DNA of 64,000 nt from an uncultured Lachnospiraceae bacterium. GTDB taxonomy: Bacteria > Bacillota > Clostridia > Lachnospirales > Lachnospiraceae. Position 1 is the first letter of the stretch. Each line of letters opens with the position of its first letter. The position numbers were made by a program, and so were the translations under genes. The DNA is taken from positions 1-64,000 of the forward strand of contig CANQBH010000004.1 of assembly GCA_947589155.1 (NCBI GenBank), written 5' to 3'. Below, one piece after another: positions 5,737-28,895 of this stretch. The notes under the pieces are model-generated. The model was given only the letters and a program-made list of their open reading frames with translations. It was not told where the DNA came from and searched no databases.

Positions 5737-8453
5737 TGGAGATACTGATACACGCCGGAGGGCTGTTCCTTACTTTTTTCGTATTGCAGCACTATATGAT
5801 GCTCGGCACCCATTCGCGGGCGCACCGTCTTTTGCCGCTGGTTCTCGGCCTGATCGCGCTGTACGATTTTTACGAGATCGTGCAGTGCATTACAAAGCAG
5901 ACCCGGACGTTTACCCTTCTCGAAGATCTGCTGATCATTCAGTTTCTCTATGTCATGCTGCACTATTTCATTGAATTTATGCGGATGCGCTGGCCGGTCT
6001 GGATCGATACGGTCATGTTCGTTTCCCTGCTGACGACCAACGCCTGCATTATTTACCGCGCGTACCTCGGCCGCCCGTACAGGAGCGTTTATTATGCGGC
6101 GGCTGTTTTTTATTCGCTGGTTCTTCTGGTCGTGGTCTGTATCGTCGTGGTGAAGTATTCGTACAGCAAACGGCAGCATTTTGTCAGCGGTATGCTGTAT
6201 CTGGCGGCGCTGCTGCCGTGGACGGCGCTGCTGGCCCGCCATGTCGGCTCCGTCCCTCCGCAGATCGTCATGACGCTGGCGCTGGCGGCAAGCTGCGTGA
6301 TCATCTTTTATCTGCTGATCACGGACCGCTTTGAAGATTCTTCCCTTTATATGCAGGAAAATATCTACCGCAGTTCGGACAACGCGCTGATCCTTCTGGA
6401 TACAGACTGCTATTTTCTTGACGCCAATCAGGAGGCGCGGCGGCTTTTGTCCGACGTGCTTGCAGCCGTGGAGCGCGAGCAGGAACGCTCGGTCTATATC
6501 GCCGCGATCCGCGAGTATCTGGCGGGAAAACGGGAAGCCCTGCTCTGGCAGCGGGAGGGCGAGTATTACCGCGGCCATATCACGCCGGTCATCCACCGCG
6601 GGCGGCTCAAGGGGTATGTGCTCACGATGTTTGACATCACGCCGCAGATGAAGGAGATCCGTGAGTCGGAAAGGAAGATGGAGGAAGCGCAGGATCTGAC
6701 CGTGCAAAAGAGCCGGTTCATGGCGCGGATGAGCCACGATCTGCGCAGCCCGCTCCATGCGATCATCGGGATCAGCGACGTGCTGATCGCGCGGCAGGAT
6801 CTGCTTTCCGAAGAACGCGGCCTGCTCCGGCAGCTGCGGCAGGCGGGCATGACGCTGCTGAAGATGGTGGACGATATCCTTGACTTTTCCAAACTCGAAG
6901 CGGGCCGGATGGAACTCAAACCGGCGGCTTACGATCTGCGGGAACTGTTGGAAGAAGTGGCGGCCGACCACGCGGTGCAGCTGCTCGATCGGCCGGTGGA
7001 ACTGACGCTTTCGGTCCGCACGCCGTATCCCCTGTATGTGACGGGCGATGCGGACAGGGTGCGCGAGATCCTGCAGAATCTCCTTTCCAACGCCGTGAAA
7101 TTTACCAAAGAAGGCAGCGTGGCCTGCGAGGTCTTCTGCGAGGAAGTTTTGGGAGAAGGCAGGGTGCGGCTGATCTGCCATGTCAGGGATACGGGGCCGG
7201 GCATGAAGGAGGAGCAGCTGCGGCAGATCTTCCGCGAATACGTTTCGTTTGCCGACAGCAGGACGCTGGAAGGGAGCGGCCTCGGGCTTTGTATCGTGCA
7301 GCAGCTGGCGGCGCTGATGGGCGGCTGCGCCTATGCGCAGAGCGACGGCGTCAGCGGTTCCGTCGTCAGTGTGGAATTGTTGCAGGAGATCGCGGAGCCG
7401 GTGCAGTGGGAACCGGCATTTTCCGTCCGCGGCGGGGAACTGCTGAGCCGCGGCATGAACTGGGCGCCTGCCGCGCGTCCGCAGTGGGAATATCCCGACG
7501 CGCGTGTGCTTCTGGCGGACGATATGGAAGTCAATCGGGAACTCTTTGCGGAGATGGCGCGTCCGTGGAAACTGCAGCTGCGCTGCGCGGCGGACGGGAG
7601 CGAGGCCGTGCGCCTTTGCGCGGAGGAGACGTTTGATCTGATCTTCCTCGATCTGATGATGCCGGAGATGACGGGAAAGGATGCGGCCGCACGGATCAGA
7701 GGGAAGCAGGACGCGCCGCTGATCGCGCTGACGGCGGACATTTCCGAGGATACTAAAAGGCTGCGGGAGGACTTCGGTTTTGCGGACGTGCTGTTAAAGC
7801 CGATGGAACCGGCGGATCTGAAAGCCTGTCTTGAAACATACCTTCCGAAGGAAAAGCGCTGCCAGCCGAGCAGTTTTGCGGCGGATCTTGCGCAGTTGCC
7901 GGGCAGCGTCAGCCGTTCCGCCTATCAAAAGACGCTGCGCACCTACGTCAGGGAAGTGGAGCCGCTGCTGGAGATCCTGCGGGAAGACGCGCAAAGGGAT
8001 CCGGAGGATTTTCGGATCAGGGTCCACGGGATCAAGGGCGTCAGCCGCCAGATCGGAAGGACGGCTGCAGCGGAGCGCGCGGAGATCATGGAAATGGCGG
8101 CAAAGGCCGGACATCAGGAGTACATCGGGCGGCACTTGGACGGTTTTCTGTCCTATCTGCGCGAGGTCGTTGAAGACGTGCGCCGCGAGGCGGCGCTCTT
8201 ATCTCTGCAGGACGGCGGCGGGAAAACAGAAGGAGAAGAAGCGCGGGCGCAAAGCGTTATCACAGACCGCAGCGTCCTGCGCCGTGAACTTGCCGACGCC
8301 TTCCGTTCCTACGACATGGAGCGGATCGAGCGGGGAATCCGCGCATGGGAAGCGGCGTCGCCGGACACCGCGGAGACGGAACTTCTGCGGGAACTGCGTG
8401 AAGCCTGCGAGGAATTTGAATACGAAAAAGGATGGGAACTTCTGGAAGGATAA
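5736..8453 (+). CDS. Hybrid sensor histidine kinase with receiver and Hpt domains
   Basis: The start is taken at the ATG overlapping the previous stop (GAGAGG upstream), not the GTG at 5718. Domains in order: multi-pass membrane sensor (about 1-205); PAS-like segment with ALILLDTDCYF; HisKA with phosphoacceptor His near residue 334 (ARMSHDLRSPLH); HATPase with LQNLLSNAVKF, DTGPGM and GSGLGL; receiver with Asp near 639 (IFLDLMMPEMTG); and a C-terminal Hpt domain with HGIKG, His near 764. All catalytic residues needed for a full phosphorelay (His-Asp-His) are present. The next receiver could be that of the HD-GYP protein encoded just upstream or the LytTR regulator downstream. The last 60 residues, after the Hpt, are charged and helical. 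Confidence 0.88.
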   Translation: MEILIHAGGLFLTFFVLQHYMMLGTHSRAHRLLPLVLGLIALYDFYEIVQCITKQTRTFTLLEDLLIIQFLYVMLHYFIEFMRMRWPVWIDTVMFVSLLTTNACIIYRAYLGRPYRSVYYAAAVFYSLVLLVVVCIVVVKYSYSKRQHFVSGMLYLAALLPWTALLARHVGSVPPQIVMTLALAASCVIIFYLLITDRFEDSSLYMQENIYRSSDNALILLDTDCYFLDANQEARRLLSDVLAAVEREQERSVYIAAIREYLAGKREALLWQREGEYYRGHITPVIHRGRLKGYVLTMFDITPQMKEIRESERKMEEAQDLTVQKSRFMARMSHDLRSPLHAIIGISDVLIARQDLLSEERGLLRQLRQAGMTLLKMVDDILDFSKLEAGRMELKPAAYDLRELLEEVAADHAVQLLDRPVELTLSVRTPYPLYVTGDADRVREILQNLLSNAVKFTKEGSVACEVFCEEVLGEGRVRLICHVRDTGPGMKEEQLRQIFREYVSFADSRTLEGSGLGLCIVQQLAALMGGCAYAQSDGVSGSVVSVELLQEIAEPVQWEPAFSVRGGELLSRGMNWAPAARPQWEYPDARVLLADDMEVNRELFAEMARPWKLQLRCAADGSEAVRLCAEETFDLIFLDLMMPEMTGKDAAARIRGKQDAPLIALTADISEDTKRLREDFGFADVLLKPMEPADLKACLETYLPKEKRCQPSSFAADLAQLPGSVSRSAYQKTLRTYVREVEPLLEILREDAQRDPEDFRIRVHGIKGVSRQIGRTAAAERAEIMEMAAKAGHQEYIGRHLDGFLSYLREVVEDVRREAALLSLQDGGGKTEGEEARAQSVITDRSVLRRELADAFRSYDMERIERGIRAWEAASPDTAETELLRELREACEEFEYEKGWELLEG

Positions 8454-17290: not shown

Positions 17291-18607
17291 ATGATCGAAT
17301 CACATCAATTAAAAAACAGGGACCGTTACCTCAATAAACTGATTGGTTTTCAGGATACCGAACCGGTAAAAGTCATCACCGGCATAAGGCGCTGCGGCAA
17401 ATCAAGCCTTTTGAAACTGATGGTCGCGCATTTGATCGAAACCGGGATCGCGCCGGAGCAGATCGTTGAGATGAACTTTGAATCAAATGATTTTCGGAAA
17501 ATGACTTCCGACGAGGTCTACGCTTATGTAAAAAAACAGACCGTCTCCGGAAAGCGCATGTATCTGTTTTTCGATGAGATCCAGAGGATCGGCGGCTGGG
17601 AGGACGCGGTCAACGCGCTGCGCGTGGATCTGGACTGCGATATCTATGTGACCGGCTCCAACGCATACCTGCTTTCCTCGGAGTATTCGACCTATCTTTC
17701 CGGCAGATGCGTAGAGATCAAAATGCTGCCGCTTTCTTTTGGTGAATTTCTTTCCTTTCATGATTTTGAAGTGAGGGAAATGGCGAGCGCTCTCGGCGGC
17801 GTCCATAAGTGTGTTTTTGATAAAAACGGCGCACAATATGAACTGCGGGAGGCGTTTGAAGCGTTCATGCGTTTTGGCGGTATGCCGGGAATCGCCGATA
17901 TCGGGCTTGATCAGGAAAAGGCGCTTTCGCTTTATGACGGGATCTATTCGACGGTCGTCGTCCGCGATATCCTTGAGCGGGAAAAGCGCCGGGGACAGAA
18001 ACAGATCGCCGATCCGGTCCTGCTTCGCAAGATCATCCTGTTTCTTGCAGACAATATCGGCTCGAATGTTTCCGTTGCATCCATCGGCAATACCTTGACG
18101 GACGAAGGCCTTCTTGAGGAGGGAAAACGGAAAGGCGCGCCGAGCGCGCATACGGTGCAGGCGTATGTCAACGCCCTGCTGGAAAGTTATTTCTTCTACG
18201 AGATCAAGCGCTTCGATATCAAGGGAAAGGAATATCTGCGCACACTCGGGAAATACTATATCGTCGATATCGGACTGAGGAATTATCTGCTTGGGTTCCG
18301 GAACCGCGACAGCGGGCACGCGCTTGAAAACGTCGTCTATTTTGAACTGCTGCGGCGGGGATACGACGTCGCGATCGGTAAGATCGACAACATGGAGGTG
18401 GACTTCATTGCAACGTCCGCGGACGAGAAAAAATATATTCAGGTGACGGAATCCATGACCGGCGAGGAGGTAAGAAAGCGTGAACTGCTCCCGCTGCAAA
18501 AAATCCGCGACAACTATGAAAAGACCGTCCTGTCGCTGGAGCCGGGGCTGGACCGTTCATATGAAGGGATCCGCTCCGAAAATCTGATCGAATGGCTGCT
18601 TGCTTAG
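17291..18607 (+). CDS. AAA-type ATPase with C-terminal DUF4143 (orphan)
   Basis: The N-terminal ATPase domain has the P-loop ITGIRRCGKSSLL (near residue 30), Walker B YLFFDEIQRI, and sensor-like YVTGSNAYLLSSE. It is followed by SGRCVEIKMLPLSFGEFL, a signature of this large family of orphan prokaryotic ATPases. The C-terminal part (DIGLRNYLLGF, HALENVVYFELLRRGYDV, VDFIATSADEKKYIQV) is a DUF4143-type domain with a PD-(D/E)XK-like fold. Family members are common, highly mobile between genomes and of unknown function. It has its own promoter and stands alone on its strand. Length is normal and the key ATPase residues are intact. Confidence 0.85.
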   Translation: MIESHQLKNRDRYLNKLIGFQDTEPVKVITGIRRCGKSSLLKLMVAHLIETGIAPEQIVEMNFESNDFRKMTSDEVYAYVKKQTVSGKRMYLFFDEIQRIGGWEDAVNALRVDLDCDIYVTGSNAYLLSSEYSTYLSGRCVEIKMLPLSFGEFLSFHDFEVREMASALGGVHKCVFDKNGAQYELREAFEAFMRFGGMPGIADIGLDQEKALSLYDGIYSTVVVRDILEREKRRGQKQIADPVLLRKIILFLADNIGSNVSVASIGNTLTDEGLLEEGKRKGAPSAHTVQAYVNALLESYFFYEIKRFDIKGKEYLRTLGKYYIVDIGLRNYLLGFRNRDSGHALENVVYFELLRRGYDVAIGKIDNMEVDFIATSADEKKYIQVTESMTGEEVRKRELLPLQKIRDNYEKTVLSLEPGLDRSYEGIRSENLIEWLLA

Positions 18608-18683: not shown

Positions 18684-18750
18684 GGGGGGTAAAATGGAAG
18701 CGATCTGGCGATGGTAACATTAAAATTAAGAATTGAGGGAGTATGCACAT

Positions 18751-21700
18751 ATGAAAAAGAAAGCAGGAAAAGGAGGAGGCAGAGTCGTTGTCTGGATCAT
18801 GATGGCGCTGATGCTTTTCAGTAGTATGCCGGTAAACGTGCTGGCACAGACAGAGACAGTAGCCGAGGGCGATGCAGTGACGCAGGAGTCCGCCGGACAA
18901 GAGTTCTCCGAAGGAACGCCGGAGGCAGTATCCGAGACGGGCGCGGACGGCTCTATGGATGCGAATACAGTAATTGAAAACAATGAGAGTGGAATTCCTG
19001 ATACTGCGCTGTATCAGTTGGCGCTTCAAGCGGCCAATGAATACGGCAATGGAAATGGAGATAACGAACTGACCGTGGCGGAAGCGCAGAGTATAGTCGC
19101 TCTTTCTTTTAATCATGAGATACGGAATTACATGGGACTGGGGACATATCTGACAGGTCTTAACAACATCAGTTTTGCCTTTTCCGCGGATTATCCGGAG
19201 ACGGAAAAAGAGGCTTGGGTTGGCGCGGCAGATTCATTCCTGACGGAATATGAAAAACTGAACCAAGTAACCAGTCTGAGTGGATTTTGGCTGACAGATC
19301 AGGCGCAGTTGGCGAAACTCGCGGAGAAGAATACGCTGAACTGGCTGGGGATAACGGTTGGCACGGATGTGACGGACGTTTCTGCGCTGGGAAAGTTATC
19401 TGCACTGACTAATTTACAAATTGGAGGAGATAAAGACAAAGAGGATCAGCAGAAATGGACAGTGGATCTTTCCGCGCTAAACGGAACGAATTTCCCGAAC
19501 CTGATTATGTTATCGGTATATGATCTCAATATTCCTACAATACCGGAAGGAATCGGTTCGATGTCATCGCTGATTAGTTTGTATTGGATATACAATAATA
19601 CGAATGAACTGGCGGACCTGAGCGGATTGGAAGGGTTAAATCTCCTGATGCTGCGGGGCAATGAGCTGACTCCGGATCAGGTATCCGGAAAAGTACCGGA
19701 GAAGTTTTATACTGACCCAGCATGGATCAAGAGCGAGATCAACTGGTCTGACACTTCTGAGCCGGATGAGGATGATGGAGAGATTAGTGAAATCATCACA
19801 AATGATGAGGATGGTATTCCGGACGCTGCGTTGTATGCGGCAGCACTGCACGCGGGCGATGAAGGATGGATAGGCAATAAGGACGGCCAACTGACGATGG
19901 ATGAGGCAAGAAATGCTTTTGATATCAGGCTTCCCTATGCGATTCGAGATTATACAGGATTGAGTCTGCTTTCCGGACTAACATCTATAAACTTTAGTCT
20001 TTATGTTATTAAGGAGGATGGCACATATACCTACGGCGAAAACCACTGGGATGAGGCGGCGGATTCTTTTTTTGAGGAATATGCAAAAATGCCTAACCTG
20101 CGGGGCGTGAGCGGGGATGGAATACAGATTGAAAATAATGTCAGGCTTAAAGAGGTGGCACAGAATCAGCAACTTACTTGTTTAACTATGCAGGTTGGAG
20201 AAGAAGTCACAGATTGGTCTGTACTGGGAAAGTTGGAACTGCAGCAGCTCTATGTGAACCACGGAATCCCTAATCTTAGTCAGTTGAAAGATCTGGAGGA
20301 CACTTTGCACACGTTGGCAATACGCCTATCCTATGACGATTCTGACACAACTTTGAATCTGGAAGTTGGCAATTTTGTGAATTTGCTGGCTTTGGATATA
20401 AGTGGTAATTTAGTTTCCATAACCGGACTGGAAAACCTTGCCAAACTGCGATATCTGTATCTGCGCCATATTCCTATGCAATACAATAACGTGGCTGAAT
20501 TGGATCGACTGCCGCTGCCAAAGTCTCTGCAGGGGTTGGGGCTGTATTATGTAAGTGTGAAGGATTTAAGTGAGTGCGGTATATCCCAACTGACGGCTCT
20601 GCAGGAACTCCGATTAGAGAATACAGGGCTGCAGACATTGGAGGGTCTGGAGAATCTGAAAAGCCTTACAACCTTAGTGCTTTCAAATAATAAGATTACG
20701 GATATCAGTCCGATAGGTGCATTGACAGATCTGGATACGCTGTATTTGAACTATAATCAAATTAAGGATATCAGTGTGCTTGGCAAGTTGACGAAGATGA
20801 CTATCCTGGGACTCTCAAACAATCAGATTACGGACGCCGCAGGACTTGAAAACCTGAAACAGTTGATTTATCTGAATCTGCAGAATAATCAACTGACAGC
20901 CCTGCCTGATCTGTCGGGTTTGGAAAAACTTGGCAAGAACGAGGTGTTTGATGTACTAGATAGTTTTAAGATTAGCGAAAATCTCCTGACAAGAGACGCG
21001 GTAGCCGGAAAGGTGCCTTCAGTATTTGAGGAAAATACGCTTTGGATGGTAAAGGCGGTTTCCCGCAATTGGGGCGGCGTTACCTTCTATGGCGATCTGA
21101 GCGCCAAGGAACTCAACGCTCTGATCTATGAGTACAATCCGAGCGGAACAGGGTTTAGTAAGACGATTTATGTGACTGACGGCAGCAAGGTGGAACTGCC
21201 TCGGGAACTGACCAAAGAACTGATAAAGGATAGAGTTAAACTAGATGTAAATTTTATGGATCTAATAGATCAAACTGACCTTGCTTTTGTAGGGCAATAT
21301 CATTTTGGTGGCGATTATCCTTATCCGGAGTCAGTGGATGTGGTATTAGAGAGCAGACCGGGCTCAAAAGTGGACGAGGAAGATCAGGAAACAGCGGAGA
21401 AATTATTCAGCCGATATGAGACGAAACCCCAGGTTCGGTGTTTCCAGATCAAGGATGCCATTGCGAACAGCCACATATATATTTACTCTGATATAAAAGT
21501 GGAAGACGGATCTAATGGAAAAAGATACGGTTTCTATTTCTATGACCGAGAAAATGCTAGGGTGATCAATGTTGGAGATTTACAGTCTATGCCAATGAGT
21601 ACCTTGAATCTTTCAACAATGCAAATTGAAACGGCTGGTTATCATGTTGAGTTTTCAAATTATTTTTCCAGATGGGATTTTACATCTTCATCATCGATAA

Positions 21701-22686
21701 ATGAACTGAAAGAAGAATGGTGCTATCCTGCGTCAAAGGGCTTCTATTTCTTGGTGGAGAGTACTTATACTCCTGAAGGCCTGAGCGAGACGCCGGAACC
21801 GAGCGAGACGCAAAAACCAAGCGAGACGCAAAAGCCAAGCGAAACGCAGAAACCTTCCGTGACGCCGGAGACGGAAAAGCCGGGCCCGGTGAAGGAAACG
21901 GATGTAAAGAAGGCCGAAGAGGCGGAAGAGATCCTGATGGATAAGATCCAGAATGGATACGGCGGAAAGGCGTCCGTAGCGATCGACCAGCCAACGACCT
22001 TGTCCAAGAATGTCTTCAAGGAGATGATGGACAATAACAAAGGCTTGTCCGTATCCGTGACAAACGAGAACAACGAGAAGATCTATGAGTGGTCGTTTGA
22101 AAGTTCAAAACTGGACCCGAGTAAATTTACGGATCTGGATCTGACCGTAAAATTTGAGACGGCGGCCAAGGAAAGGATCGAAGCCATAACGGGTCAGAAG
22201 GATGCGTTCTATATGTCCTTTAATTATCACGGCGATCTGCCGGCGCCTGCCACGATGACCGTGTATGTAGGCGATCGGTATAAGGATGGAGACATCGTGT
22301 ATCTGTACTATTACAATAATGAAACGGACGAAGTGGTTTCCATTCCTGGAAGGAATGTCTACGGGGAAGAAGTTTACCAAAACGGTTATAAGGTGGTGAA
22401 CGGATATATCACATATACGATCACGCACTGTTCGGATTATTTCCTGTCAGAGAAGACGCCGGAGGAACTTGGCGTGACCGTTGAGGAGACCTCAGGATCT
22501 GTGGAAAATAATGGATCGGAGGCTTCAGCGGATGCGAATGTGCCGAAAAAGGTTCTCAGCCCGAATACGGGAGACAATACCTATGGATCAGCCGGTTGGC
22601 TTATGCCGGGCGCGGCAGCGCTTCTTCTGGCTTTCCTTGGAATCGCAGGCCTTGTACGCGCAGCGAAATCCGGAACGGAAGAATAG
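18751..22686 (+). CDS. Large leucine-rich-repeat cell-wall protein with SPNTG sorting signal
   Basis: The start is at MKKKAGKGGG (GAGGGAG upstream) and begins a signal peptide ending near VLAQTE. Two copies of a module follow (GIPDTALYQLALQAAN and GIPDAALYAAALHAGD), each with an EF-hand-like calcium loop (GNGDNELTVAEA; NKDGQLTMDEA). SDS22/internalin-type leucine-rich repeats then run about residues 570-740 (LVLSNNKITDISPI, LYLNYNQIKDISVL, LGLSNNQITDAAGL). Later come a Ser/Thr-Pro linker with three PSETQK repeats, a folded domain, and a C-terminal SPNTGD, hydrophobic stretch and short charged tail, which is a sortase-type signal with Ser in place of Leu. It is predicted to be wall-anchored and exposed, with a binding or adhesion role. 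The middle is more AT-rich than the flanks, suggesting recombination or transfer. No sortase gene is in the window. Confidence 0.85.
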   Translation: MKKKAGKGGGRVVVWIMMALMLFSSMPVNVLAQTETVAEGDAVTQESAGQEFSEGTPEAVSETGADGSMDANTVIENNESGIPDTALYQLALQAANEYGNGNGDNELTVAEAQSIVALSFNHEIRNYMGLGTYLTGLNNISFAFSADYPETEKEAWVGAADSFLTEYEKLNQVTSLSGFWLTDQAQLAKLAEKNTLNWLGITVGTDVTDVSALGKLSALTNLQIGGDKDKEDQQKWTVDLSALNGTNFPNLIMLSVYDLNIPTIPEGIGSMSSLISLYWIYNNTNELADLSGLEGLNLLMLRGNELTPDQVSGKVPEKFYTDPAWIKSEINWSDTSEPDEDDGEISEIITNDEDGIPDAALYAAALHAGDEGWIGNKDGQLTMDEARNAFDIRLPYAIRDYTGLSLLSGLTSINFSLYVIKEDGTYTYGENHWDEAADSFFEEYAKMPNLRGVSGDGIQIENNVRLKEVAQNQQLTCLTMQVGEEVTDWSVLGKLELQQLYVNHGIPNLSQLKDLEDTLHTLAIRLSYDDSDTTLNLEVGNFVNLLALDISGNLVSITGLENLAKLRYLYLRHIPMQYNNVAELDRLPLPKSLQGLGLYYVSVKDLSECGISQLTALQELRLENTGLQTLEGLENLKSLTTLVLSNNKITDISPIGALTDLDTLYLNYNQIKDISVLGKLTKMTILGLSNNQITDAAGLENLKQLIYLNLQNNQLTALPDLSGLEKLGKNEVFDVLDSFKISENLLTRDAVAGKVPSVFEENTLWMVKAVSRNWGGVTFYGDLSAKELNALIYEYNPSGTGFSKTIYVTDGSKVELPRELTKELIKDRVKLDVNFMDLIDQTDLAFVGQYHFGGDYPYPESVDVVLESRPGSKVDEEDQETAEKLFSRYETKPQVRCFQIKDAIANSHIYIYSDIKVEDGSNGKRYGFYFYDRENARVINVGDLQSMPMSTLNLSTMQIETAGYHVEFSNYFSRWDFTSSSSINELKEEWCYPASKGFYFLVESTYTPEGLSETPEPSETQKPSETQKPSETQKPSVTPETEKPGPVKETDVKKAEEAEEILMDKIQNGYGGKASVAIDQPTTLSKNVFKEMMDNNKGLSVSVTNENNEKIYEWSFESSKLDPSKFTDLDLTVKFETAAKERIEAITGQKDAFYMSFNYHGDLPAPATMTVYVGDRYKDGDIVYLYYYNNETDEVVSIPGRNVYGEEVYQNGYKVVNGYITYTITHCSDYFLSEKTPEELGVTVEETSGSVENNGSEASADANVPKKVLSPNTGDNTYGSAGWLMPGAAALLLAFLGIAGLVRAAKSGTEE
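21799..21852 (+). repeat. Three in-frame 18-bp repeats coding PSETQK
   Basis: Three consecutive units encode PSETQK in the linker before the C-terminal domain of the LRR protein, followed by a partial PSVTPE. Such linkers expand and contract by slippage. Confidence 0.9.
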
Positions 22687-22828: not shown

Positions 22829-23509
22829 TTAGAGTAATTTTTTCTTTATATTTTTCAAATAATTTTTCTTGAATGTTCTGATATTACCAAAGAACATTAA
22901 CTCGGAATGACTGAAAGAGTTTGTTTCAGCCTTTTCGGCTAAAAGTTCCATTGTACAAATAAGATCAGCAATTTGGAATAACTTATAATTTATAGGTTTT
23001 ACTTTTCGGAATTCAACATGAGTATATAATGTATTGAAGATGGATATAAGAATTTTAGTGAGTTCAATTTGTCCGTTGTCATAGTAGATGATTACCTTAT
23101 CAAAACTATTCCAAAAATCTTCATTGTTTCGCAGTATGTCAGCCAAATTTTTCGAAATTTTTGAAGTCATTGATATGACATCCGGACATTCGATTTTCTT
23201 TACTTTTATGTAGGAATAGTGAAAATCCAGTTTGCGGGCAAAGTTAAATAATGCATTGAATAAGCGTTTTCTTTCTTCAATAAGGGCGTTAGTATAAACG
23301 GCTTCGCGCCTTATCAGCGGACCGGTATGAATGGCGTGATGTGGATAGCCTAAGTTTGATAAATGCGAATCAAAAACTTTTATATTTTCGGAGATATCAA
23401 TATTTTGATTATGTAATACCATAGAAACCACGTAGTAGGGTGCGTGGGGGTCGTAAGGACCAAAATCACCAGATTCATCTATGAATACACTAAGTATTTT
23501 TTCTGACAT
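22829..23509 (-). CDS. DUF3800 family protein
   Basis: The signature FIDESGDFG near the N-terminus and the late FQIADLICTMELLAEK are characteristic of DUF3800 proteins, which are thought to have an RNase H-like fold. The Asp and Glu of DESGD and the later Asp in YYDNGQ and IADLI would be the acidic active-site candidates. The start is taken at MSEKILSVF (AGGATG upstream), not the TTG six codons earlier. DUF3800 genes are scattered among phages, mobile elements and defence loci, without a settled function. This gene is very AT-rich and is preceded by a strong promoter plus a folded RNA ending in a terminator-like hairpin, a layout like type III toxin-antitoxin loci. Whether the protein is a nuclease or toxin is inference. 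Confidence 0.8.
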   Translation of the reverse strand: MSEKILSVFIDESGDFGPYDPHAPYYVVSMVLHNQNIDISENIKVFDSHLSNLGYPHHAIHTGPLIRREAVYTNALIEERKRLFNALFNFARKLDFHYSYIKVKKIECPDVISMTSKISKNLADILRNNEDFWNSFDKVIIYYDNGQIELTKILISIFNTLYTHVEFRKVKPINYKLFQIADLICTMELLAEKAETNSFSHSELMFFGNIRTFKKNYLKNIKKKLL

Positions 23510-23543
23510 ACAATCATCCTTTTCCAATCCTGCGTATGAAAAT

Positions 23544-23617
23544 GGCGGGGAAATTCCCCGCCGTTCGGTGGACCAGGGTCTTTCGACCAGCCCGAATCAG
23601 CCACCGCTGATTTATTA
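23544..23617 (-). ncRNA. Predicted pseudoknot RNA upstream of the DUF3800 gene
   Basis: On the minus strand, starting about five bases after the predicted transcript start, AATCAG and CTGATT form a stem whose whole loop CGGTGG is complementary to CCACCG 24 bases further on, giving an H-type pseudoknot. Between them GGTC-GAAA-GACC forms a GNRA tetraloop hairpin. Directly after comes GGCGGGG-AATTT-CCCCGCC followed by ATTTTC, a terminator-like hairpin, and then the DUF3800 gene. All pairings are read directly. I recall published DUF3800-associated RNA motifs from comparative genomics, but cannot tell if this matches any. It could be a trans-acting RNA partner of the protein or a cis-acting attenuator. 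Confidence 0.55.
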
Positions 23618-23623
23618 TATGCA

Positions 23624-23652
23624 ATTATAAGTCAAATACACCCAAATGTCAA
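23624..23652 (-). promoter_or_regulatory. Consensus promoter of the pseudoknot RNA/DUF3800 unit
   Basis: On the minus strand a perfect TTGACA and a perfect TATAAT are separated by 17 bases. The predicted start (about 23617) lies just before the first stem of the RNA. This is the best consensus promoter seen in the window. Confidence 0.8.
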
Positions 23653-23698
23653 ATGCCCGTATCTGCGGGATGTGTTATTTCAAATATACGCTTCCGCC

Positions 23699-24265
23699 TC
23701 ACTTCTTCAGCCGCAGCCCGTCTTTGAACGCTTCGCCCACGCGCTCGGTCACTTTATAATAGCCGTGCGTATAAGGATCGAAAGCGATCGCGTTCACCAG
23801 CGACATATCCAGCGCGCCGTCCGGCATGACGCTCTCGTCGGCCGTCGCAGCGACGACCCTGCCGATCACGCCGCAGCCGTATTTGTTGTTTTGGTACTCG
23901 ATAAATTCACATTCCAGACAGAGCGGGAACTCGTTGATCACCGGAGCGTCGACCGTCTCCGCCTTGCTTGCGGTCAGACCGGCTCTTGCGAGTTTGTCCG
24001 CTTCTTTGTTTCCGGACTCGACGCCAAAATAGTCGGCTTCCGTCACATGCGCCGCGTCCGCGATGCTCACGGTAAAAGCGCCCCGCTTTTTGATGTTCTG
24101 CACGGTCTTGTGCGTCTCGGTGAGGTTGAGCGCGACCACGCCGCGTTCCTGCATCGTTCCCCATGCCGCGTTCATTACGTTCACGCTGCCGTCGTCGTTA
24201 TAGGTGGCGACCATCAGCACGGGCATCGGAAAGATGCCTTCCGTGATATTCAGTTTCTTTCTCAT
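23699..24265 (-). CDS. Flavin reductase-like (FMN-binding split barrel) protein
   Basis: A 188-residue protein with the split-barrel layout of flavin reductase-like proteins: PMPVLMVATYNDDGSVNVMNAAWG near the N-terminus (quoted in part), then VALNLTETHKTVQNIKKRGAFTVSI, the usual NxRxSxxT-like region, and a C-terminal strand with GCGVIGRVVA. Such proteins bind FMN and reduce it or use it for small redox reactions; the substrate cannot be read. GGAGGG precedes the ATG. It is monocistronic, with its own promoter, divergent from the CooC-led operon, so a redox link with that operon is possible but unproven. Confidence 0.8.
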   Translation of the reverse strand: MRKKLNITEGIFPMPVLMVATYNDDGSVNVMNAAWGTMQERGVVALNLTETHKTVQNIKKRGAFTVSIADAAHVTEADYFGVESGNKEADKLARAGLTASKAETVDAPVINEFPLCLECEFIEYQNNKYGCGVIGRVVAATADESVMPDGALDMSLVNAIAFDPYTHGYYKVTERVGEAFKDGLRLKK

Positions 24266-24540: not shown

Positions 24541-25317
24541 ATGGATCAGCCAAAAAACAAAGCCAGGATCCTTGCCGTGGCTGGCAAGGGCGGCGTCGGA
24601 AAGACTTCTCTTGCGGCAGTGATGGTCAAACTGCTGACGGAGACTTATCCCGACAGCCGGATCCTGGCTATTGACGCGGATCCGGCCGTGGGACTTTCCA
24701 CAGCCCTCGGCGTCAGCGTAGAAACAACGATCGACGATATCCGCAAAGAAGTCGTAGCACATGCCGAGGACGGCGATTCCAAAACGGCGCTGGAACTGCT
24801 CGGCGAAGCGCGCTACCGCATTTTTGACGCGCTGGTGGAGATGGACGGATTTTCGTTCATCGCCGTCGGACGTCCGGAAGCGGCGGGCTGCTATTGCAAG
24901 ATCAACAGTTATCTAAAGGAAGTCATCGGTATGCTTTCCGAAAATTACGACTATATCGTGATCGACGGAGAGGCGGGGATCGAGCAGATCAACCGCCGCG
25001 TGATGGAGAAGGTGACGCATCTCTTTCTGGTGACGGATTCTAGCAGAAAAGGAACGCAGGTCGTGCAGACGATCAAGTCCGTGGCGGACGAACTGGTCAT
25101 GTACGATCAACTCGGCGTGATCGCCAACCGCCTGCCGGATCTGCGGGTAAAGGAACAGATGGACCTCGGGGATCTTCCGGTCCTTTCCTATATCCTGTCG
25201 GACGGCGCGCTGGCGGAAGCGGACTTAAAAGGCGACAGCCTCTTTGGTCTGGATCAGGACTCAGCGATCGTGCGCGGGGCAAGGGAAGCCCTGCAAAAGA
25301 TCGGGATCATAGCGTAA
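24541..25317 (+). CDS. CooC/MinD-like P-loop ATPase
   Basis: The N-terminus carries a deviant Walker A motif, AVAGKGGVGKTSL, as in the MinD/ParA/NifH class, and the layout of CooC-type proteins (ILAIDADPAVGLSTALGV, later YDYIVIDGEAGIEQINRR and LFLVTDSSRKG). CooC proteins are ATPases that help insert nickel into carbon monoxide dehydrogenase. A CRxC-like metal site is suggested by GCYCKIN near residue 120. It leads the eight-gene operon, which also holds an acetyl-CoA-synthase-like gene and a HypA homologue, both tied to nickel enzymes, so a metal-cluster maturation role is more likely than partitioning. GGGGAG lies before the ATG. No good promoter was found in the preceding 270 bases, which hold a small hairpin (CCCCT-GCG-AGGGG). 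Confidence 0.75.
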   Translation: MDQPKNKARILAVAGKGGVGKTSLAAVMVKLLTETYPDSRILAIDADPAVGLSTALGVSVETTIDDIRKEVVAHAEDGDSKTALELLGEARYRIFDALVEMDGFSFIAVGRPEAAGCYCKINSYLKEVIGMLSENYDYIVIDGEAGIEQINRRVMEKVTHLFLVTDSSRKGTQVVQTIKSVADELVMYDQLGVIANRLPDLRVKEQMDLGDLPVLSYILSDGALAEADLKGDSLFGLDQDSAIVRGAREALQKIGIIA

Positions 25318-25329
25318 GGGAGGAAAAGA

Positions 25330-26520
25330 ATGAAAGATCTGAAGCACCTGTATTATTTTGAACAGCTTTTGGAGGACGCCCACAACGATCTTGTCCGCCA
25401 GGCAAAGCAGGACGGCTTAAAGTGCATTGCCACGACCTGTGAGAATGTGCCGGAGCCGCTGGTGAACCTGCCGGGGACGTTTTCCGTCAGGCTGCGCGCG
25501 CCGCGTACCGGCTCCATGGAGATGGGCACCTATTACCTGACGAGTTTTCTGTGCGAGTACAGCCGCGCGCTGTTGGAGCGCGCGATGGAGGGCGGCTTTA
25601 ACTTTACCGACGCGATCATCACGCCGGACGGCTGCACCATGATGAACCGCTGCATTGAGAACATGGAACTTCTCAAGACCATGGATAAGCCGGGCTTTTT
25701 CTACGAGTACATGGAGATCCCGATGAAGTCGGACGACAACGCCCTAAATCTCTATGTCCGCCAGTGCCGCAACCACATCCTTGCGCCGCTGGAAAAGAAT
25801 TACGGGATCGACACTTCCGACGCCGCGATCCGCAAAGCGGTAGACGAACACAATCAGATCTGCCGGATCCTGCGGGAGATCGGTGATTTCCGCAAGGACG
25901 AAAAGCCGAGGATCACCGGCTACGAATACCATATCTTAACCATGCTCAGTTACGTTGCGCCGAAGGCGCTGCTTCTGGACAAATACCGCGAGACGCTCGA
26001 AGAAGTCAAGAACCGCGAACCGGACGAAAAATCCAAATTCCGCGCCAGAGTGCTGCTGGTCGGTTCCGAGGTCGACGACGTGGACGTGGTGAAACTGATC
26101 GAGGAATCCGGCGCTTACGTCTGCGCCGACCGCTTCTGCTACGGATCGCTGCCGAGCAGGGACGAGATCCTCTTAAACGACGAGGAGGACGCGCTGACGC
26201 AGGTCTGCCGCGCGTATATCCGCCGCGGCCAGTGCCCGCGTTACATGGATACGCCTAAGATGAACGAGCGCCGCGCCTATGTGGACCGGATGGCAAAAGA
26301 ATACAAGGCGGACGGAATCATCTACGAACAGATGAAGTTCTGCGATCCGTGGGCTTACGAAAAGATGATGGGCACAACGATCCTGCGGGACGACTACCAC
26401 TATCCGGTGCTCGGCGTCGACCGTCCGTATGCGATCGGCATGTCCGGACAGATGCGGACCCGCGTGCAGGCCTTTGTGGAGAGCATTGAGATCAAGAAGA
26501 TTCAGGGAGGTGCGAGATAA
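25330..26520 (+). CDS. 2-hydroxyacyl-CoA dehydratase-family Fe-S subunit (HgdB/BcrC-like), first
   Basis: A 396-residue protein of the family that includes HgdB, BcrC/BcrB and the double-cubane cluster protein. Cysteines expected to hold an Fe-S cluster are visible: ITPDGCTMMNRC, GQCPRYMD and EQMKFCDPWAYE. The C-terminal half (ARVLLVGSEVDDVDVVKLIEESG, GVDRPYAIGMSGQMRTRVQAFVE) is the usual second Rossmann-like lobe. Members receive electrons from an ATP-dependent activase and carry out difficult reductions or radical dehydrations. There is no CoA-transferase, ETF or beta-oxidation gene nearby, so a hydroxyacyl-CoA substrate is not supported. The stop overlaps the start of the second subunit (TAATG), implying a complex of the two. 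Confidence 0.85.
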   Translation: MKDLKHLYYFEQLLEDAHNDLVRQAKQDGLKCIATTCENVPEPLVNLPGTFSVRLRAPRTGSMEMGTYYLTSFLCEYSRALLERAMEGGFNFTDAIITPDGCTMMNRCIENMELLKTMDKPGFFYEYMEIPMKSDDNALNLYVRQCRNHILAPLEKNYGIDTSDAAIRKAVDEHNQICRILREIGDFRKDEKPRITGYEYHILTMLSYVAPKALLLDKYRETLEEVKNREPDEKSKFRARVLLVGSEVDDVDVVKLIEESGAYVCADRFCYGSLPSRDEILLNDEEDALTQVCRAYIRRGQCPRYMDTPKMNERRAYVDRMAKEYKADGIIYEQMKFCDPWAYEKMMGTTILRDDYHYPVLGVDRPYAIGMSGQMRTRVQAFVESIEIKKIQGGAR

Positions 26521-28082
26521 TGGCGAAAGAAGTCGGCAAGGATCGTCTCGGAGATTTCTATACCACCGGGACCGTTCGCAAGCGTCGGGAGTGGCGCGGC
26601 TTTAAGGATACGTTTTACGATTACGGCAGATGGCTCTATATCATGTCCATTCTGGCAAAGTTCATCATCAAGCCGCGGAATATCAAAGCGATGTTCCGTT
26701 ACCGCTGGATGTCCAACTATCTTGCAGTGCCGATGATGGTAGACCGGCATACGCAGGGGCTGCGCGGCGAATATCTGCGCATCTGCCACGCGGAGCAGGA
26801 TCTTATCATCTACGACGTGGCAAAACTTCTCGACAATCTGTTCCGCGGCGACAGGCGGATCGGCAACGATAAGGAGTTTAGCAAAAAGGTCATCCTTGTG
26901 GACGAGAACGAGATGACCGCCGTGATGATGGGCTTCCCGACCGTCAAGGGGCTGTCCCGCGAGACGCCGTCGACCTACGTTCCGGTGCTGTTAAATCAGC
27001 ACTCCATGGAACACTACATCGACGTGGCGCAGGAATACGGCCTGCCGGGCGACGTCTGCCCGATGCCTGAGGCGGAATGCGGCGTTTCCATCGACGGCGA
27101 TGCGCCGGTGCTCGGCGCGGGCGCGATCCAGTGCAACACCACCTGCGACGGCTCCCTGCTTGGCAACGGCGTCATCAGCAAGCGGCTGGAGCAGGAGGAC
27201 GGGATACCGGTCTTCCAGCTGGCGGCTCCGCTGCGGCATACGGAAGAAGACGTGCAGGACTACGCGGCGCAGGAGATCAAAAACGCGATCGCCTTCGTCG
27301 AGAAATGCACCGGAGAAAAATGGGATTGGGACTATTATTTCAGCTGCGCGAAGCGCGTCAATGAATCCACGCGCCACCGTCTGGAATGGCTCGAGATGAA
27401 CAAGACGGATTATCCGCAGGTCTTCGGTTCCAACCTCGCGCTCTATACCGAAACAAATTACATGGCGATCTGCGGCAAGGTGCCGGAGTTCGTCGAGGCG
27501 GACCGCAAGATCTCCGCGCTGGCGGAGAAGGCTTTCCGCGAAAAGAAGATGATGGCGAAAGAATACCGCCACCGCGCGATCGTGTGGGGCGTGCAGTCGC
27601 ACTTCTACTTTGACTTCCTGCTGTGGATCCTAAACTGCTGGGGTATCGTCGGGCTGACCGACATGCTGTCCATGGTCTCCACCAAGGAGATCGCGGAGGA
27701 GGATACGCCGGAAAACCGCGAGCAGGCATATTACGACATGGCGTGGCTGACGGAGAACATGATCATGCGGAACCGTACCCACGGCGGATACAAGGTCCTT
27801 CTGGACGATCTGTGGGATTACGTGGAGGAGTTCCACGCCGACATGGTCATCCTCTGGGAGCATATGGCATGCAAGGCATTAAACGGTATGCACGGCCAGT
27901 TCGAGGAAAAGGCGCGTGAAAAAGGTATCCACCTTGTATGGGTGACGCATGACCTGTTCGACCCGCGTATCATTTCCCGTCAGGGCGTGCGCGACCAGAT
28001 CAACCTTTACATGAGGACCGTATTGAACGAAGAACCGCTGGATCCGACGCTCGAGATCCTGACGGATGAAAATTCCTGGTAG
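26520..28082 (+). CDS. 2-hydroxyacyl-CoA dehydratase-family Fe-S subunit, second (divergent, 520 aa)
   Basis: Longer than its partner and less typical. The N-terminal 90 residues are basic and aromatic (KRREWRGFKDTFYDYGRWLY). The core has cysteines in PEAECGVSI and IQCNTTCDGS, then YFSCAKRVNESTRH, and ends with LWEHMACKALNG and VTHDLFDPRII. The overall pattern of two lobes with late Cys/His elements fits the same family as the upstream gene, probably as the second subunit of a heterodimer as in HgdAB and BcrBC. The translational overlap supports equal amounts of both. The family call is less secure than for the first subunit; the substrate is unknown. Confidence 0.7.
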   Translation: MAKEVGKDRLGDFYTTGTVRKRREWRGFKDTFYDYGRWLYIMSILAKFIIKPRNIKAMFRYRWMSNYLAVPMMVDRHTQGLRGEYLRICHAEQDLIIYDVAKLLDNLFRGDRRIGNDKEFSKKVILVDENEMTAVMMGFPTVKGLSRETPSTYVPVLLNQHSMEHYIDVAQEYGLPGDVCPMPEAECGVSIDGDAPVLGAGAIQCNTTCDGSLLGNGVISKRLEQEDGIPVFQLAAPLRHTEEDVQDYAAQEIKNAIAFVEKCTGEKWDWDYYFSCAKRVNESTRHRLEWLEMNKTDYPQVFGSNLALYTETNYMAICGKVPEFVEADRKISALAEKAFREKKMMAKEYRHRAIVWGVQSHFYFDFLLWILNCWGIVGLTDMLSMVSTKEIAEEDTPENREQAYYDMAWLTENMIMRNRTHGGYKVLLDDLWDYVEEFHADMVILWEHMACKALNGMHGQFEEKAREKGIHLVWVTHDLFDPRIISRQGVRDQINLYMRTVLNEEPLDPTLEILTDENSW

Positions 28083-28100
28083 GAGAGGGGGAAATCAAAA

Positions 28101-28895
28101 ATGAAATACTTTGGAGGATGCGATTCCGGAAGTACCTATACAAAATGCGTGATCATCGATGAAAACGGCAAGATGGTGGCGGACGTCACCCTGCGCAGCC
28201 GTATCAACGCGGTGCTCAGTTGCGAGGAGGCGCTGCAGAAGGCCGTAGAGCAGGTCAGCGAACTCAAGGACGCCAAGGATCTGACCTATCTGGTCGGCAC
28301 CGGATACGGACGGAACAAGGTGCCGTTTGCGGACGAGAACATCTCGGAGATCAGCTGCCACGCGATGGGCGTACATATGGCGGACCCGACGGTCAAGGCC
28401 ATCATCGATATCGGCGGGCAGGACGTCAAGGGGATCGCGGTGGACGACGACGGCACGGTCAAGAACTTCGCGATGAACGACAAGTGCGCGGCCGGTACCG
28501 GACGTTTCTTTGAGACGATGGCAAAGGCGTTTGAGATGAGTCTCGAGGACTTTTCCAAACTTTCGCTCAAGGCAAAGAACGTGATCCCGATCACGGCGCA
28601 GTGTACGGTGTTCGCCGAGTCCGAGGTTATCTCCCTTGTGGGCGAGGGCAAGCCGATGGACGAGATCGCGGCGGGTATCGAACTTTCCGTGGCAAAGCGC
28701 TGCTTCGTCATGAGCAAGAAAGCGGGCGCGACCGACTCGATCACGCTGACCGGCGGCTGCGCGAAGAACGACGGCCTGAAGGAAGCGATCGAGAAGGTGT
28801 TGAACCTCAAGGTGATCGACCTGCCGATCGACCCGCAGTTGATGGGCGCGCTCGGCGCCGCCGAATATGCAAGGCAAAAAGGAATGGCAAGTTAA
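28101..28895 (+). CDS. ATP-dependent activase of the dehydratase-family enzyme (BadF/HgdC type)
   Basis: A 264-residue single-subunit activase, the usual HgdC size. It has the ASKHA-fold phosphate loops CDSGSTYTKCVI at the N-terminus and IDIGGQDVKGIAV in the middle. The two cysteines that would share a 4Fe-4S cluster between two subunits are in NDKCAAGTGRFFE and ITAQCTVFAESEV. The C-terminal TGGCAKNDGL completes the signature. These activases use ATP hydrolysis to fire a very low-potential electron into the partner dehydratase or reductase. It starts 18 bases after the second subunit, so this ATPase almost surely serves that pair. Confidence 0.93.
   Translation: MKYFGGCDSGSTYTKCVIIDENGKMVADVTLRSRINAVLSCEEALQKAVEQVSELKDAKDLTYLVGTGYGRNKVPFADENISEISCHAMGVHMADPTVKAIIDIGGQDVKGIAVDDDGTVKNFAMNDKCAAGTGRFFETMAKAFEMSLEDFSKLSLKAKNVIPITAQCTVFAESEVISLVGEGKPMDEIAAGIELSVAKRCFVMSKKAGATDSITLTGGCAKNDGLKEAIEKVLNLKVIDLPIDPQLMGALGAAEYARQKGMAS

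What the first reader, a model, noticed from the sequence alone, without database searches (positions are those of the whole stretch)
22829..23652. Promoter, pseudoknot RNA, terminator and DUF3800 gene: a type III toxin-antitoxin-like layout
Seen: a perfect TTGACA-17-TATAAT promoter starts a transcript about five bases before an H-type pseudoknot (AATCAG/CTGATT with loop CGGTGG pairing CCACCG) containing a GGTC-GAAA-GACC hairpin. A GC-rich terminator-like hairpin follows and then the DUF3800 ORF. Known: type III toxin-antitoxin loci have promoter, pseudoknot RNA, terminator, then an RNase toxin; DUF3800 is thought to be RNase H-like, and RNA motifs next to DUF3800 genes have been reported as I recall. 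Inference: the RNA binds or restrains the protein.
Basis: partly seen in the sequence, partly recalled or inferred. Interest (0 to 1): 0.85.

Follow-up and report, generated by a model that had tools for sequence, protein, structure and literature searches.

The report
Small RNA guarding a suspected toxin
A gut-type bacterium carries a short folded RNA next to a gene for a suspected RNA- or DNA-cutting protein; the protein never appears without the RNA, while bacteria and viruses of bacteria often carry the RNA alone, as expected if the RNA is an antidote that viruses have copied.

Summary
The locus is real. A perfect TTGACA-17-TATAAT promoter drives a ~75-nt RNA of three hairpins, the last an intrinsic terminator, followed by a DUF3800 gene. 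The RNA is the known but unexplained Rfam family DUF3800-XI (RF02975, 70 bits). Relatives show a one-way dependency: all 30 DUF3800-XI protein loci examined have the RNA just upstream, but 43 of 71 assessable bacterial RNA loci have a broken or missing DUF3800. 23 phage contigs (~15 lineages, up to 184 kb) carry the RNA with no DUF3800 anywhere in the record. In the ten records tested, 8 of 11 copies lie within 300 nt of a same-strand tRNA gene (0.34 expected). An unrelated RNA family, DUF3800-I, also occurs alone beside phage tRNA genes. The protein is predicted to have an RNase H-like fold closest to RNase HII, with invariant D-E-D-D. Best reading: an RNA-restrained nuclease, functionally like type III toxin-antitoxin systems but not a member; phages carry solo RNAs as counter-defence. 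Toxicity and binding are inferred. I found no report of the phage copies, but the founding paper could not be read.

The parts
23624..23652 (-). sigma-70-type promoter TTGACA-17-TATAAT; start of transcription expected near 23617
   Evidence: 12/12 consensus match; 19 of 28 bacterial homologues with intact DUF3800 have a match of at least 9/12 upstream of the RNA (6.1 expected); 0 of 15 phage stand-alone copies do
23595..23612 (-). 5' hairpin AATCAGC-GGTG-GCTGATT, variable in sequence, absent from the Rfam model; not a conserved pseudoknot
   Evidence: 31 of 75 homologues have a significant hairpin here (p<=0.05); loop complement to CCACC in 1 of 75; minimum-energy fold
23569..23594 (-). conserved core stem-loop of DUF3800-XI RNA (GGGCUGGUC-GAAA-GACC..GGUCC)
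   Evidence: RF02975 70.1 bits; 5 of 10 pairs with changes on both sides, 95.6% of cells paired across 91 sequences
23544..23562 (-). 3' hairpin, also an intrinsic terminator here (GGCGGGGA-ATT-TCCCCGCC then ATTTT)
   Evidence: all 8 pairs show changes on both sides, 88.7% of cells paired; kept without a T-run in most phage copies
22829..23509 (-). DUF3800 gene (226 aa), putative RNase H-like nuclease; invariant D11 E12 D15, H61, R67, E69, D144, Q147, Q179, D182
   Evidence: PF12686 4.3e-10; invariant columns; AlphaFold2 pLDDT 93.4; RNase HII and Piwi/Argonaute among the best folds

Best explanation
The locus is a two-part RNA-protein module that works like a type III toxin-antitoxin or abortive-infection system. 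One promoter makes a short, abundant three-hairpin RNA. Most transcripts end at the third hairpin; occasional read-through makes the DUF3800 mRNA, so RNA exceeds protein. The DUF3800 protein is a metal-dependent nuclease with an RNase HII-like D-E-D-D site. The RNA binds it through the conserved core (invariant UG..GG..CA bases) plus the 3' hairpin and holds it inactive until a phage or other stress upsets the balance. Phages carry the RNA alone, mostly in tRNA clusters whose transcripts they process anyway, as a ready-made antidote; bacteria keep solo RNAs for the same reason or as remnants after losing the toxin. Shown here: RNA identity and structure, the one-way dependency, solo phage copies beside tRNAs, predicted fold and invariant acidic residues. 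Inferred: binding, inhibition, nuclease activity, toxicity, anti-phage role.
For: 1) Promoter-RNA-terminator-gene order as in type III and AbiF systems (PMC5086642, PMC12373285). 2) Covariation in the core and 3' hairpin: 13 of 18 pairs changed on both sides, 121 such cells against 22.9 in shuffles, 0/500 shuffles reach it, and every slid version is far worse. 3) One-way dependency: of 30 DUF3800-XI protein loci found by protein profile, 28 have a strong RNA match just upstream, one a weak match (25 bits, E=2e-5), one a partial match cut by the contig end; three of these loci were not known from the RNA search. Conversely, of 75 bacterial RNA loci 28 have an intact, 13 a broken and 30 no DUF3800 within 1.5 kb, 4 are cut by contig ends; RNA invariants are kept in all classes. 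4) 23 of 29 virus records with the RNA have no PF12686, several above 100 kb, with terminase genes nearby. 5) 8 of 11 copies in the ten records tested lie within 300 nt of a same-strand tRNA; 0.34 expected, P about 1e-11. Phage tRNA clusters are documented anti-defence loci (PMC11555353, PMC10264068). 6) The unrelated DUF3800-I RNA (RF02969) also occurs alone beside phage tRNAs (L256, L267/L269): what the two RNAs share is DUF3800. 7) RNase HII-like fold with invariant acidic residues. 8) Precedents: phage TE pseudo-ToxI (PMC5086642), solitary-repeat RNA anti-CRISPRs (PMC10651486).
Against: No toxicity, binding or phage data. An RNA needed as a cofactor would also give the protein-needs-RNA dependency. 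Phage tRNA clusters collect other structured RNAs of unknown function (ROOL in L221, drum RNA beside the copy in L155/L159/L163), so tRNA neighbourhood alone does not prove counter-defence. The protein profile was built from RNA-linked loci, which biases the dependency test towards close relatives. No match in the PADLOC defence models. Fold matches are moderate (best Z 8.9), and a shared fold shows no activity.
Confidence: 0.55

Rival explanations
1. RNA-armed effector: the RNA is an activating cofactor (scaffold or guide) of the DUF3800 nuclease, and solo phage RNAs are defective decoys that occupy the protein, as RNA anti-CRISPRs do.
For: The protein is never found without the RNA; PIWI/Argonaute domains are among the next-best folds; DUF3800 is linked to Cas12a2 in some CRISPR loci (PMC10910872); solo phage RNAs fit decoys.
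Against: The conserved core is all structured with no conserved free guide segment; the variable 5' hairpin is self-paired; bacteria with broken or no DUF3800 keep intact RNAs, which a pure cofactor does not explain well.
Confidence: 0.2
2. The RNA has its own housekeeping or translation-related role, in bacteria and in phage tRNA clusters, and DUF3800 is an optional enzyme that processes or degrades it.
For: Solo copies are common in bacteria and phages and lie beside tRNAs with other unexplained RNAs.
Against: Patchy distribution (44 of 299 family genomes, 12 of 391 class, 2 of 299 phylum) argues against housekeeping; two unrelated RNA families share the pattern only through DUF3800.
Confidence: 0.13
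3. Cis-acting leader only: the RNA is a 5' attenuator that sets DUF3800 expression, for example through protein-controlled termination, with no action in trans.
For: Same strand, 19-60 nt from the RNA model end to the start codon in every intact locus, terminator between.
Against: Dozens of solo copies without any downstream DUF3800, many without promoter or terminator T-run.
Confidence: 0.06
4. Selfish insertion: the RNA and gene form a small mobile element and the solo RNAs are its remnants.
For: Scattered sites, several copies per genome, many broken copies.
Against: No conserved ends or target duplications noticed; RNA structure stays intact in solo and phage copies.
Confidence: 0.06

Closest known systems
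Rfam RF02975 DUF3800-XI RNA
   Same: Window copy scores 70.1 bits over the full 48-position model; the window RNA is a member.
   Different: The Rfam model pairs only the core stem. The 3' hairpin is left unpaired and truncated there and the 5' hairpin is outside it; the 3' hairpin has strong covariation. No function is assigned.
Type III toxin-antitoxin systems (ToxIN, CptIN, TenpIN)
   Same: Promoter, RNA, Rho-independent terminator, downstream gene; a phage carrying an antitoxin-like RNA (pseudo-ToxI of phage TE) is on record (PMC5086642).
   Different: Single RNA unit, no tandem repeats, no conserved pseudoknot, RNase H-like rather than ToxN-like protein.
AbiF/RCd22 of Clostridioides difficile (Abi_2 protein with abiF-motif RNA, RF03085)
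   Same: Structured RNA, not processed from tandem repeats, with promoter and terminator upstream of the toxin gene; the RNA neutralises the protein in cis and in trans (PMC12373285).
   Different: Different RNA family and an unrelated protein family; toxicity is shown there and not here.
RNA anti-CRISPRs (solitary repeat units in phages)
   Same: Phages carry a lone copy of the RNA partner of a host RNA-protein system (PMC10651486).
   Different: The RNA here is not a CRISPR repeat and the target would be DUF3800.
DUF3800-I RNA (RF02969) and its DUF3800 genes
   Same: 5' hairpin, structured core, terminator, DUF3800 gene; solo copies beside phage tRNAs (L256, L267/L269).
   Different: Different, longer core with no evident similarity to XI.
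RNase HII
   Same: Among the best fold matches (1eke_B Z 8.9; 2dff E 6.5e-5); the IDESG motif lies where RNase HII has its DEAG motif (motif position from general knowledge).
   Different: No detectable sequence relation; extra helices; substrate unknown.

Membership tests
Rfam RF02975 DUF3800-XI | covariance-model score above the gathering cut-off | tested here: met
   70.1 bits against 37.8, positions 1-48 of 48
Pfam PF12686 DUF3800 | profile score above the gathering cut-off | tested here: met
   40.9 bits against 21, E=4.3e-10
Type III toxin-antitoxin | promoter, antitoxin RNA, Rho-independent terminator, downstream toxin-size gene | tested here: met
   definition from PMC5086642
Type III toxin-antitoxin | antitoxin RNA encoded as tandem repeats | tested here: not met
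   no tandem unit in 23500-23720; homologues carry one core each
Type III toxin-antitoxin | H-type pseudoknot in the antitoxin | tested here: not met
   loop complement present in 1 of 75 homologues; overlaps a covarying stem
Type III toxin-antitoxin | ToxN-like toxin fold | tested here: inconclusive
   the model matches RNase HII and Piwi; ToxN is not among the listed matches, which does not exclude it formally
Type III toxin-antitoxin | protein toxic, neutralised by the RNA | not testable with these tools
   needs expression experiments
RNA-antitoxin systems in general | toxin gene never without its antitoxin, antitoxin able to stand alone | tested here: met
   30 of 30 protein loci with RNA, two of them weak or partial; 43 of 71 assessable bacterial RNA loci without an intact protein
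AbiF system (RF03085 RNA with Abi_2 protein) | RF03085 RNA and Abi_2 protein | tested here: not met
   only RF02975 reaches its cut-off in the window; the protein matches PF12686 only
RNase H-like nuclease (RNase HII type) | RNase H fold with acidic residues on strand 1, at the end of a later central strand and in the final helix of the fold | tested here: met
   D11 E12, D144, D182 invariant in 30 of 30, at those places of the model; best folds RNase HII
RNase H-like nuclease (RNase HII type) | nuclease activity | not testable with these tools
   needs purified protein
Known anti-phage defence (PADLOC-DB 2.0.0) | match to a PADLOC model | tested here: not met
   0 families for the DUF3800 protein at E up to 1

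The most novel reading that the evidence does not exclude
DUF3800-associated RNAs of several unrelated families form a broad class of RNA-restrained, RNase HII-like anti-phage nucleases, and phages answer with solo copies of the RNA hidden among their tRNA genes: phage RNA antidotes would then be a general part of phage tRNA clusters.
Probability: 0.4. Interest if true: 0.85.

Novelty: new variant of a known kind. Interest (0 to 1): 0.68.

Why it matters
DUF3800-associated RNAs have Rfam entries (at least eleven numbered motifs) but no assigned function. The one-way dependency and the solo RNAs in phage tRNA clusters turn that open question into a direct test: does the RNA silence the protein, and does the phage copy defeat the bacterial module? 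If so, a new kind of RNA-controlled nuclease joins the RNA-antitoxin systems, and non-tRNA genes in phage tRNA clusters gain a testable role.

Tried and rejected
A 14-base pattern scan of genome contigs was too loose and returned mostly chance matches; only 11 of the 25 contigs re-scored with the model held a strong RNA match, plus one borderline hit. A pattern for the TGGTCTGGGC subtype found no virus contigs. Seven contigs (L212, L214, L222, L224, L225, L229, L233), and L220, were judged chance matches and dropped (no 3' hairpin by eye; L212, L214 and L220 had no RF02975 match). No match of the RNA in deposited phages by blastn; only partial chance-level matches in plasmids. A single tblastn fragment in a phage record (MT836742.1) was not followed. 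No solved structure related by sequence. Empty-site comparison in the same-genus genome failed: the neighbouring flavin reductase there is only 46% identical. Weinberg et al. 2017, taken to be the source of the DUF3800 motifs, is not held. Other DUF3800 motifs than I and XI were not scanned.

Full report
WHAT IS THERE. On the minus strand the window holds a perfect sigma-70-type promoter (23652-23624, 12/12), a short structured RNA, an intrinsic terminator (23562-23544) and, 34 nt further on, a DUF3800 gene (ATG at 23509, stop ending at 22829; 226 aa). The RNA is Rfam RF02975, DUF3800-XI, at 70.1 bits over the whole model. The predicted 80-nt transcript folds into three hairpins at -38.2 kcal/mol, 4.3 standard deviations below shuffles. 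A second, divergent copy (RNA 43 bits, protein 39% identical) lies on another contig of the same genome.

STRUCTURE. I collected RNA matches from 299 genomes of the same family (44 with a match), 391 of the class (12) and 299 of the phylum (2), plus virus contigs. In an alignment of 91 distinct sequences the core stem-loop and the 3' hairpin are strongly supported: 92.5% of cells paired, 13 of 18 pairs with changes on both sides, 121 such cells against 22.9 in shuffles, and far lower values when partners are slid by one to three columns. The Rfam model pairs only the core; the 3' hairpin is an extension with eight of eight pairs showing double changes. A 5' hairpin just after the promoter is common but variable (31 of 75 at p<=0.05). 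The proposed pseudoknot partner, GGTGG upstream, occurs in the window copy only, and its 3' side overlaps the covarying stem. The H-type pseudoknot is therefore not supported as a conserved feature.

PROTEIN. Thirty full-length relatives share invariant D11, E12, D15, H61, R67, E69, D144, Q147, Q179 and D182. AlphaFold2 gives a confident model (pLDDT 93.4). Foldseek's significant PDB matches are all RNase HII (E 6.5e-5 to 7.8e-4). VIA-align puts RNase HII first (1eke_B, Z 8.9, 165 residues, 4.0 A) with Piwi/Argonaute domains close behind. The IDESG motif falls on strand 1, D144 just after a later central strand, and D182 in the helix after the last strand: an RNase HII-like acidic set (residue correspondence inferred from strand order and general knowledge of RNase HII). 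An RNase H fold for DUF3800 was already noted by others (PMC10910872). Activity is not shown.

ONE-WAY DEPENDENCY. A search of the same 299 genomes with the protein profile gave 30 loci that were then checked for the RNA. 28 have a strong RNA match just upstream, one a weak match (25.3 bits, E=2e-5) and one a partial match cut by the contig end; three loci had not been found through the RNA. The reverse does not hold. Of 75 bacterial RNA loci, 28 have an intact DUF3800, 13 a broken one, 30 none within 1.5 kb and 4 are cut by contig ends. The six invariant RNA bases and the core pairing are kept in all classes; some of the protein-less loci score just below Rfam's cut-off. In a Pseudobutyrivibrio contig a solo RNA of one subtype sits directly upstream of a complete module of another subtype, with a third RNA nearby (L120). 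Protein and RNA-core distances correlate (Mantel r=0.62, p=2e-4), as expected for parts inherited together.

PHAGES. Pattern scans of IMG/VR and a covariance model gave 29 virus records with the RNA (E 5e-10 or better). Twenty-three have no DUF3800 domain anywhere in the record, including records of 116 to 184 kb; they fall into about 15 lineages by RNA and flanks (my grouping). Terminase genes lie near the RNA in L158, L160, L215, L219 and L234. In ten records with whole-record tRNA scans, 8 of 11 RNA copies lie within 300 nt of a same-strand tRNA, five of these within 75 nt, against 0.34 expected (P about 1e-11, or 2e-9 ignoring strand). One phage carries two copies (L223). None of 15 stand-alone copies tested has a promoter match of 9/12, whereas 19 of 28 bacterial copies with intact genes do. 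Most phage copies lack the T-run yet keep the 3' hairpin with different but complementary sequence.

A SECOND RNA FAMILY. DUF3800-I (RF02969) has a different, longer core. Virus scans gave ordinary promoter-RNA-terminator-DUF3800 loci, and also solo copies: L256 (69 kb) directly 5' of a tRNA-Thr, and L267/L269 (172 kb and 26 kb) inside a tRNA cluster, all without DUF3800. What two unrelated RNAs share is their protein partner, so the pattern points to DUF3800 as the reason phages keep them.

INTERPRETATION. An RNA that the protein cannot do without, but that often persists without the protein, behaves like an antidote. Phage RNA mimics of an antitoxin (pseudo-ToxI of phage TE; PMC5086642) and of CRISPR repeats (PMC10651486) are known, and phage tRNA genes are documented means of evading host defence (PMC11555353, PMC10264068). 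The AbiF system of C. difficile shows that a non-tandem RNA upstream of a toxin gene can neutralise it in cis and in trans (PMC12373285). I therefore favour an RNA-restrained nuclease with phage-borne antidote RNAs (0.55). The main rival is an RNA cofactor with phage decoys (0.20). Binding, inhibition, toxicity and anti-phage effect are all untested.

LIMITS. Weinberg et al. 2017, which I take to be the source of the DUF3800 motifs (own knowledge), could not be read; it may mention solo phage copies. Eleven papers in the library name DUF3800; the three I opened describe no such function. The dependency test uses a profile built from RNA-linked loci. IMG/VR records are mostly fragments. Other RNAs of unknown role share the phage tRNA clusters (ROOL, drum).

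Noticed in passing
L155 11384-11537, L159 485-638, L163 3610-3763 (virus contigs): A drum RNA (RF02958) ends directly at the start of the stand-alone DUF3800-XI RNA; the two Rfam matches overlap by a few bases.
   Followed up: no
L221 434-11982 (virus contig): A phage tRNA cluster holds 22 tRNA genes, a ROOL RNA (7644-8224) and a solo DUF3800-XI RNA (2200-2246).
   Followed up: partly
L256 1244-1416; L267 3864-4379; L269 4150-4665: Solo DUF3800-I RNAs beside phage tRNA genes, with no DUF3800 in the record.
   Followed up: partly
L120 1663-3134 (Pseudobutyrivibrio): Three DUF3800-XI RNAs of different subtypes within 1.5 kb, only one with a DUF3800 gene.
   Followed up: no
L126 378-441 (Fibrobacter MAG): DUF3800-XI RNA with its DUF3800 gene in a contig assigned to another phylum: horizontal transfer or binning error.
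   Followed up: no
L266/L273: A DUF3800-I RNA with promoter is followed not by DUF3800 but by a different small gene beginning MEQKIKAMDVANFF, possibly a Panacea/DUF4065-type antitoxin (from memory).
   Followed up: no
window 18733-22686 (+): 1317-aa leucine-rich-repeat protein with a C-terminal LSPNTG-like sortase motif, a likely cell-wall surface protein, convergent with the DUF3800 gene.
   Followed up: no
window 17291-18607 (+): AAA_14/DUF4143 ATPase matching the PADLOC candidate defence family PDC-S01 (E 2e-148).
   Followed up: no
window 24541-28895 (+): Operon-like run: MinD/CooC-like ATPase, two double-cubane/2-hydroxyacyl-CoA-dehydratase-like proteins below NCBIfam cut-offs, and an acyl-CoA dehydratase activase.
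   Followed up: no
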